Assembly (NCBI RefSeq): GCF_000277125.1
Contig: NC_016946.1
Span: 4,278,001 to 4,342,000, forward strand
Direction: 5' to 3'
DNA from: Mycobacterium intracellulare ATCC 13950
Lineage (GTDB): Bacteria; Actinomycetota; Actinomycetes; Mycobacteriales; Mycobacteriaceae
Length of the DNA stretch: 64,000 nt
Both the position numbers and the translations under genes were made by a program. The notes below the pieces were generated by a model, which worked only from the letters and a program-made list of their open reading frames with translations, ran no database searches and was not told the origin of the DNA. This document shows positions 4,129 to 5,824 of this stretch, piece after piece. Positions within the stretch are counted from its first letter, which is position 1. Every line of letters begins with the position of its first letter.

Positions 4129-5824
4129 AGGGTCCTCTCGGCGTGCTCACGCTGGCGCTGCGGACGTTCCTTGCGCTCGGACCCGGACTGCGGGGCGGAT
4201 TGACCACCCGGCTGGGAAGGCTGCGGGATCGGTTTCATGGGCAACGGGCTGGTGGTGACCTTGTGCCCGCGAACCAGCGGGAGCGTCAGCCGGAAGCACG
4301 AGCCGTCGCCCGGTTCGCCCCACGCCTCCAGCCGGCCCTGGTGCAGCCGCGCGTCCTCGATGCTGATCGCCAGGCCGAGCCCGGTGCCGCCGGACCGGCG
4401 CACCCGCGAGGGGTCCGCACGCCAGAACCTGCTGAAGACCAGCTTCTCCTCGCCCGGGCGGAGCCCGACCCCGTAGTCGCGGACGGTGACCGCGACCGTG
4501 TCCTCGTCGGCGCCCATCCGGATCTTGACCGGCTTGTGCTCGGCGTGGTCGATGGCGTTGGCGATCAGGTTGCGCAGGATCCGCTCCACCCGGCGGGTGT
4601 CGACCTCGGCGATCACCTCGTGCGTGGGCAAATCCACCTGCAGTTCGATGCCGGCGTCCTCGGCCAGATGCCCCACGTTGCTCAGCGCGCTGCGCACGGT
4701 GGTGCGCAGGTCGACCGCCTCGACGGACAGCTCGGCGACACCGGCGTCGTGCCGGGAGATCTCCAGCAGGTCGTTGAGCAGCGACTCGAACCGGTCCAGC
4801 TCGCTGACCATCAGCTCGGTGGAGCGCGCCAGCGTCGGGTCGAGATCCGCGCTGTGGTCATAGATCAGGTCGGCGGCCATGCGCACCGTGGTCAGCGGGG
4901 TGCGCAGCTCGTGGCTCACGTCAGAAGTGAAGCGGCGCTGCAGGTTACCGAACTCCTCCAACTGGGTGATCTGTCGCGACAGGCTTTCCGCCATGTCGTT
5001 GAACGACATCGCCAGCCGCGCCATGTCGTCCTCGCCGCGCACCGGCATCCGTTCCGACAGGTGCCCCTCGGCGAACCGTTCGGCGATGCGCGACGCCGAC
5101 CGCACCGGCACGACGACCTGGCGCGACACCAGCAACGCGATCCCGGCCAGCAGCACCAGCAGCACGGCGCCGCCGGTGATCATGGTGCCGCGCACCAGCT
5201 GGATGGTGGCCTGCTCGTTCTTCAGCGGGAAGATCAGGTACAGCTCCAGGTTGGCCACCTGCGAGGACGCCGGGGTGCCGACGATCAGCGCCGGGCCCGA
5301 GAACCCGTCGGTGTGCACTGTCGCGTACTGGTATGAGGCCTGCCCGGCCTTGACGAAGCCGCGCAAGGAATTGGGCACCTGGTCGACGGGCCCGGCCGTG
5401 GTGGCGGCGCGCGGTCCGTCGCCCGGCACCATCAGCACCGCGTCGAAGGCGCCGGCCATGCCCGCGCCGGAGGCCTGGTCGGTCTTGGACGTCAGTGTGT
5501 TGCGGGCCAGCTGCAGGCTGCTGTCCAGCGAGCGCGCCTCCTCGCCGTTCACGATCCCACCGACCTTGGTCCGCGCCCGCTCGATCTGTTCGATGGCGGC
5601 CTTGACCTTGACGTCGAGCACGCGATTGGTGACCTGAGACGTCAATACGAAGCCGAGCGCCAGGATGACCGCCAGCGACAGCCCAAGCGTCAGCGCGACG
5701 ACCGCAACTGCAGCGAGCGGCGCCAGGCGATGGCGACGGCCCGACTCACTGCGCCCATCCCGCGAGTCATGGGGCCGGAGCGCCCCCAGCGGCTCCGTGT
5801 GCGTCGCCGGGAGCCCCAGATCAC
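4125..5824 (-). pseudogene. mtrB: Sensor histidine kinase MtrB, with an apparent one-base frameshift
   Basis: MtrB is the membrane sensor kinase of the essential MtrA regulator, coupling cell-wall status to DNA replication and division genes. From TTG 5645 down to the TGA at 4125 the frame is intact: extracellular region, second membrane segment (VLLVLLAGIALLVSRQ), HAMP, H-box SDVSHELRTPLTT, and HATPase motifs (NLIANAIDH, DYGVGL, GGTGLGLAI). The N terminus starts at GTG 5822-5824, reads as the known family sequence (GSRRRTRSRWGRSGPMTRG) and continues to SLQLR, but then needs one extra base near 5702-5703 to join the downstream frame. With that base restored the gene has 567 codons, the normal length. 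In the downstream frame there is no usable start before TTG 5645, so an intact product would lack the first membrane helix. It may be a real mutation or a sequencing error. Confidence 0.88.
5698..5706 (-). other. mtrB: Frameshift site in mtrB (missing G in a GGG run)
   Basis: On the minus strand the sequence reads TTGCGGTCGTCGCGCTG. The MtrB protein LQLR-VVALTLG requires TTGCGGGTCGTC, so one G (a C on the plus strand at about 5702-5703) is missing. Upstream codons match the family only in one frame and downstream codons only in the other, which puts the event within these few bases. Confidence 0.85.

What the first reader, a model, noticed from the sequence alone, without database searches (positions are those of the whole stretch)
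5698..5706. One-base frameshift in the mtrB sensor kinase
The mtrB N terminus (from GTG 5822-5824) matches the family up to SLQLR, and the rest matches from VVALTLG onward, but in different frames: one G is missing from a GGG run on the minus strand (plus-strand CC at 5702-5703). Restoring it gives exactly 567 codons. Sequence shows this directly. MtrAB is known to influence morphotype and drug susceptibility in M. avium, so a lesion here could be a real phase-variation-like or passage-selected event. Homopolymer sequencing error is the alternative.
Basis: partly seen in the sequence, partly recalled or inferred. Interest (0 to 1): 0.75.

Follow-up and report, generated by a model that had tools for sequence, protein, structure and literature searches.

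The report
Broken mtrB frame, probably sequencing error
In this genome of a Mycobacterium avium-complex bacterium the gene for the cell-wall sensor MtrB is split between two reading frames, while relatives carry it whole; the split is most likely an error in the deposited sequence, but a real loss of the gene has not been ruled out.

Summary
On the minus strand the mtrB start frame (GTG 5824-5822) ends at TGA 5692-5690 after 44 codons; the rest of MtrB (4125-5645) is in another frame with no ATG, GTG or TTG before TTG 5645. The gene is single-copy. Of 170 fetched mtrB loci, 151 read through in one frame, including all 80 from the named-genome scan.

The genome is not M. avium (88% gene identity); its length matches M. 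intracellulare ATCC 13950 as I recall it. There is no repeat tract, and the 3' frame shows ordinary purifying selection (dN/dS 0.05-0.11).

In the same 396 genomes, frame breaks were found in 4 for mtrB, 1 for lpqB and 5 for ahcY, so mtrB is no clear hotspot. Published TnSeq finds lpqB more needed in ATCC 13950 than in clinical strains; since LpqB restrains MtrB, this hints at a working MtrB.

Best reading: error in the reference (0.6). A real loss (0.3) stays open: this assembly is otherwise clean, and M. marseillense has an independent mtrB break. Raw reads would decide.

The parts
5698..5706 (-). Junction where the mtrB reading frame changes
   Evidence: Frames read apart; one-nucleotide length difference from an intact relative; G000-specific against three other genomes
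5690..5824 (-). 5' piece of mtrB: GTG start, 44 codons, TGA; the first 41 residues are family sequence
4125..5645 (-). 3' piece of mtrB from the first TTG: HAMP, HisKA, HATPase_c
5838..6524 (-). mtrA, response regulator, intact
   Evidence: 228 aa, NF040689 matched 1-219 of 219
2371..4128 (-). lpqB, accessory lipoprotein of MtrAB, intact
   Evidence: 585 aa, NF010141 matched 3-584 of 584
6605..7237 (-). tmk (thymidylate kinase; name recalled), open frame of 210 aa
7327..8799 (-). ahcY (adenosylhomocysteinase; name recalled, consistent with the operon order in PMC12726824), control gene
   Evidence: 490 aa; full-length matches in relatives

Best explanation
The frame break is most likely an error of the deposited reference sequence: one nucleotide lost in a short G/C run during sequencing or assembly, so that an intact single-copy mtrB reads as broken. 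In the living strain MtrB would then work as in its relatives: a membrane histidine kinase that phosphorylates MtrA and is restrained by LpqB. Shown here: the broken frame, intact relatives, absence of decay, and the background rate of such breaks in genome assemblies. Inferred: that the strain itself is intact.
For: (1) 151 of 170 mtrB loci are one-frame, 80 of 80 of the named-genome scan; the window's two copies aside, none is broken at this junction among those that hold it. (2) The 3' frame shows dN/dS 0.051-0.105 against nine relatives, no decay. (3) Neighbour genes break in assemblies at similar rates: 4 of 396 genomes for mtrB, 1 for lpqB, 5 for ahcY. (4) Silencing mtrB stops growth of M. 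tuberculosis (PMC9159947, passages). (5) LpqB restrains MtrB, and MtrA activation without LpqB needs MtrB (same passages); lpqB takes fewer insertions in ATCC 13950 than in clinical strains (PMC12726824, section 8), the opposite of what loss of MtrB predicts. (6) The same group used GS FLX pyrosequencing for a sister strain (PMC3587921, whole text).
Against: The assembly is otherwise clean: within about 197 kb covered by genes of three other genomes, G000 has two such sites, mtrB and one upstream of upp. The run at the junction is short, where pyrosequencing errors are less common (recalled). M. marseillense has an independent mtrB break; I estimate about 2% chance for that. lpqB breaks less often than mtrB (1 against 4). 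The sequencing method for ATCC 13950 itself was not seen, and the strain name is recalled.
Confidence: 0.6

Rival explanations
1. A real, recent loss of function in the sequenced culture, strain-specific or selected in laboratory passage: translation stops after 44 codons, no full-length sensor is made, MtrA loses its kinase, and envelope, division and drug susceptibility change.
For: Clean surroundings in this assembly; an independent break in M. marseillense; [quoted passage not shown] avium (PMC2945938, passages), so mutants are viable in that species (inference).
Against: mtrB essential or growth-limiting in M. tuberculosis; TnSeq logic for lpqB; control genes break too.
Confidence: 0.3
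2. The gene works in spite of the break: recoding at the junction, or start at a CTG codon or TTG 5645, gives a functional or truncated kinase.
For: The 3' frame keeps HAMP, HisKA and HATPase_c, is open for 570 codons and has CTG codons upstream.
Against: The split is not seen at this place in any of 151 one-frame relatives; no Rfam match at gathering score at 3900-6700. Recoding signals were not searched for otherwise.
Confidence: 0.05
3. Phase variation: the junction switches between an open and a closed frame in a population.
For: None beyond the one-nucleotide difference.
Against: No tandem repeat at 5500-5900, longest homopolymer 3 at 5680-5725, one frame in 151 relatives.
Confidence: 0.03

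Closest known systems
MtrB of the MtrAB-LpqB two-component system (NF040691), e.g. P0004, named by its source as M. avium MtrB
   Same: Both pieces match it in order; gene order mtrA-mtrB-lpqB; HAMP, HisKA, HATPase_c
   Different: Here the first 41 residues and the rest are in different frames; P0004 is one frame
mtrB of M. marseillense (G062)
   Same: Also split into two frames in a finished assembly
   Different: Broken at another place, near residue 288 of P0004
mtrAB mutants of M. avium with altered morphotype (Cangelosi 2006, cited in PMC2945938)
   Same: Same operon
   Different: Those are studied mutants with a phenotype; here there is only a sequence, in another species

Membership tests
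MtrAB histidine kinase MtrB (NF040691) | Score above the curated cut-off | tested here: met
   3' piece 696.7 bits, cut-off 450
MtrAB histidine kinase MtrB (NF040691) | HAMP, HisKA and HATPase_c domains | tested here: met
MtrAB histidine kinase MtrB (NF040691) | Lies between mtrA and lpqB | tested here: met
MtrAB histidine kinase MtrB (NF040691) | One open frame from the family start through the N-terminal part | tested here: not met
   TGA after 44 codons; met in 151 of 170 loci
Phase-variable gene | Repeat tract at the switching site | tested here: not met
Phase-variable gene | Mixed forms in one population | not testable with these tools
   No reads available
Programmed frameshift | Split conserved in relatives | tested here: not met
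Sequencing error | Absent from reads or from resequencing of the same strain | not testable with these tools
   No reads available

The most novel reading that the evidence does not exclude
Cultured strains of M. avium-complex species repeatedly lose MtrB: the sequenced cultures of this strain and of M. marseillense each carry a different, real mtrB break, so work on this reference strain is done on a natural mtrB mutant, and reported strain differences in the need for lpqB are tied to it.
Probability: 0.1. Interest if true: 0.55.

Novelty: not a real feature. Interest (0 to 1): 0.17.

Why it matters
If the sequence is wrong, the point is practical: the reference to which TnSeq studies of M. 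intracellulare are mapped (NC_016946.1 in PMC7096427, passages), if this is that genome, would misrepresent mtrB. If it is right, a widely used type strain would lack the sensor that controls division, envelope permeability and intrinsic drug tolerance, which would colour its phenotype data.

Tried and rejected
The first script timed out; a second with filtered genes worked. A pairwise in-frame-stop count between G000 and G062 was swamped by spurious GC-rich ORFs in both directions and is not used, so the second 0.4 Mb of both genomes added nothing.

Recurrent selected loss of mtrB: attractive after M. marseillense, but of the 28 split or weak genomes re-examined only G062, G061 and G322 show adjacent pieces in different frames; the others are contig ends, second copies, a rearrangement, distant full-length copies or no match. 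ahcY breaks as often, lpqB less. The control counts are lower bounds: 13 genomes were re-examined for lpqB and 28 for ahcY, and 10 of the 14 genomes without an ahcY match at 1e-40 were not.

Papers: the ATCC 13950 genome paper, Cangelosi 2006 and the MtrB septum paper are not held. Searches: mtrB with M. intracellulare and ATCC 13950, 0 papers; OCU_RS44690, 0 (this tag for mtrB is inferred from OCU_RS44685 lpqB and OCU_RS44705 adenosylhomocysteinase); M. marseillense JCM 17324 genome, 0. Seen: PMC12726824 section 8 and passages; PMC7096427, PMC8025370, PMC2945938, PMC9159947, PMC12338722, PMC8131024, PMC12519085, PMC12123282 passages; PMC3587921 whole text; PMC8445491 abstract and outline; PMC3738906 search listing only. 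Promoter, terminator and Rfam scans found nothing.

Full report
What is there. The minus strand carries ahcY (7327-8799), tmk (6605-7237), mtrA (5838-6524), mtrB and lpqB (2371-4128). The four neighbours are uninterrupted frames, and mtrA and lpqB cover their family models nearly end to end. The family start of mtrB is GTG 5824-5822; its frame gives 41 family residues, three further codons and TGA at 5692-5690. The rest of MtrB is in another frame, open for 570 codons from after the mtrA stop to 4125. In that frame no ATG, GTG or TTG occurs before TTG 5645, so no ordinary start gives a protein with the whole N-terminal part. An alignment with an intact relative shows a one-nucleotide length difference at the junction; three of the four best relatives align over 1,292 bases to the window's 1,291. 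No other full copy exists in the genome: the 12 further kinase matches are 37% identical or less.

Which organism. The genome is one contig of 5,402,402 bases. Genes in the 0.4 Mb around the window are on average 93% identical in DNA to G062 and 88-89% to G354 and G263. G062 is M. marseillense: its second contig equals plasmid NZ_AP022585.1. G354 encodes an MtrB 100% identical to P0004, which its source names as M. avium. The window is therefore not M. avium. The length matches M. intracellulare ATCC 13950 as I recall it; no call confirms the name.

Is the gene whole elsewhere. Of 179 loci tested, 170 hold an mtrB at 70% identity or more; nine others are five more distant homologues and four other kinases. 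Of the 170, 151 (121 distinct protein sequences) run in one frame through the N-terminal stretch into the kinase; some genomes are represented more than once. All 80 loci of the named-genome scan are among the 151 (that scan kept the best 80 of 381). The other 19 are two copies of the window, three of the G062 break, one each of G061, G322 and the rearranged G113, ten cut by contig or locus ends, and L141, whose match ends at residue 459 beside an inverted piece at a contig end. Across 396 Mycobacterium genomes 394 have a match at 1e-70 or better; G000 is matched from residue 40 only (about 150 rows were printed). The 28 genomes with split or weak matches were looked at again.

Is mtrB special. 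The best DNA match among 297 genomes, M. marseillense, has its own mtrB break elsewhere in the gene. G409, seen only in the 396-genome draw, has lpqB 99% identical and a one-frame mtrB (L332). As controls the neighbours lpqB and ahcY were searched in the 396 genomes. Adjacent pieces in different frames on one contig: mtrB 4 (G000, G062, G061, G322), lpqB 1 (G152), ahcY 5 (G061, G149, G336, G274, G408). These are lower bounds. mtrB does not stand out, although it breaks more often than lpqB. G061 is broken in both mtrB and ahcY, as expected for an error-prone assembly.

How clean is this assembly. Genes of four genomes were aligned over about 0.4 Mb. Frame changes against all three others: G000 2, G062 2, G354 4, G263 13, within 192-210 kb covered by genes of all three others. 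In G000 one site is mtrB; the other lies about 54 nt upstream of the conserved upp start (gene name recalled). So by this strict measure mtrB is the only break inside a conserved gene of that stretch; 129 of the 307 G000 genes called were covered to 80% or more by all three. Looser counts (two of three references) give 10 sites in G000, several of them alignment noise at gene ends in my reading. For M. marseillense the chance that one of its two sites falls in mtrB is about 2% (2 sites per 192 kb times 1.7 kb, my estimate). This is the main point against a plain error, and it rests on one genome.

Selection. Against nine relatives the 3' frame has pS 0.17-0.31 and dN/dS 0.051-0.105. Any loss is too recent to have left a mark.

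Genetic logic. In M. tuberculosis, strong silencing of mtrA, mtrB or lpqB prevents growth, and MtrA activation without LpqB requires MtrB, so LpqB is held to restrain MtrB (PMC9159947, passages). In M. intracellulare, lpqB (OCU_RS44685) takes more insertions in clinical strains than in ATCC 13950 (PMC12726824, section 8). If the harm of losing LpqB runs through MtrB, a strain without MtrB should tolerate it better, not worse. This is inference across species, and it assumes that the window is that strain.

Verdict. An error in the deposited sequence is the best single explanation (0.6), a real recent loss the main rival (0.3).

Noticed in passing
L116, L249, L254 (G062:C1 near 2711214): The M. 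marseillense genome also has mtrB split into two frames, at a different place.
   Followed up: partly
L296 (G150:C3:465500-472500): A second, partial copy of mtrA and the mtrB N-part and of the ahcY C-part, with repeats of 1,183 bp (100%) and 795 bp (99.7%): tandem duplication or assembly artefact.
   Followed up: partly
L295 (G113:C3:412000-419000): mtrB C-part and lpqB come first, mtrA and the mtrB N-part follow downstream: rearrangement or misassembly.
   Followed up: partly
L297 and L325 (G061): Breaks in both mtrB and ahcY, the latter in three frames: probably an error-prone assembly.
   Followed up: partly
G000:C1:4373855 (outside the window): A one-nucleotide difference from three relatives about 54 nt upstream of the conserved upp start.
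   Followed up: partly
L205-L224 (G263): 13 frame changes against all three other genomes in about 207 kb, far more than the other three genomes; perhaps an error-prone assembly.
   Followed up: no
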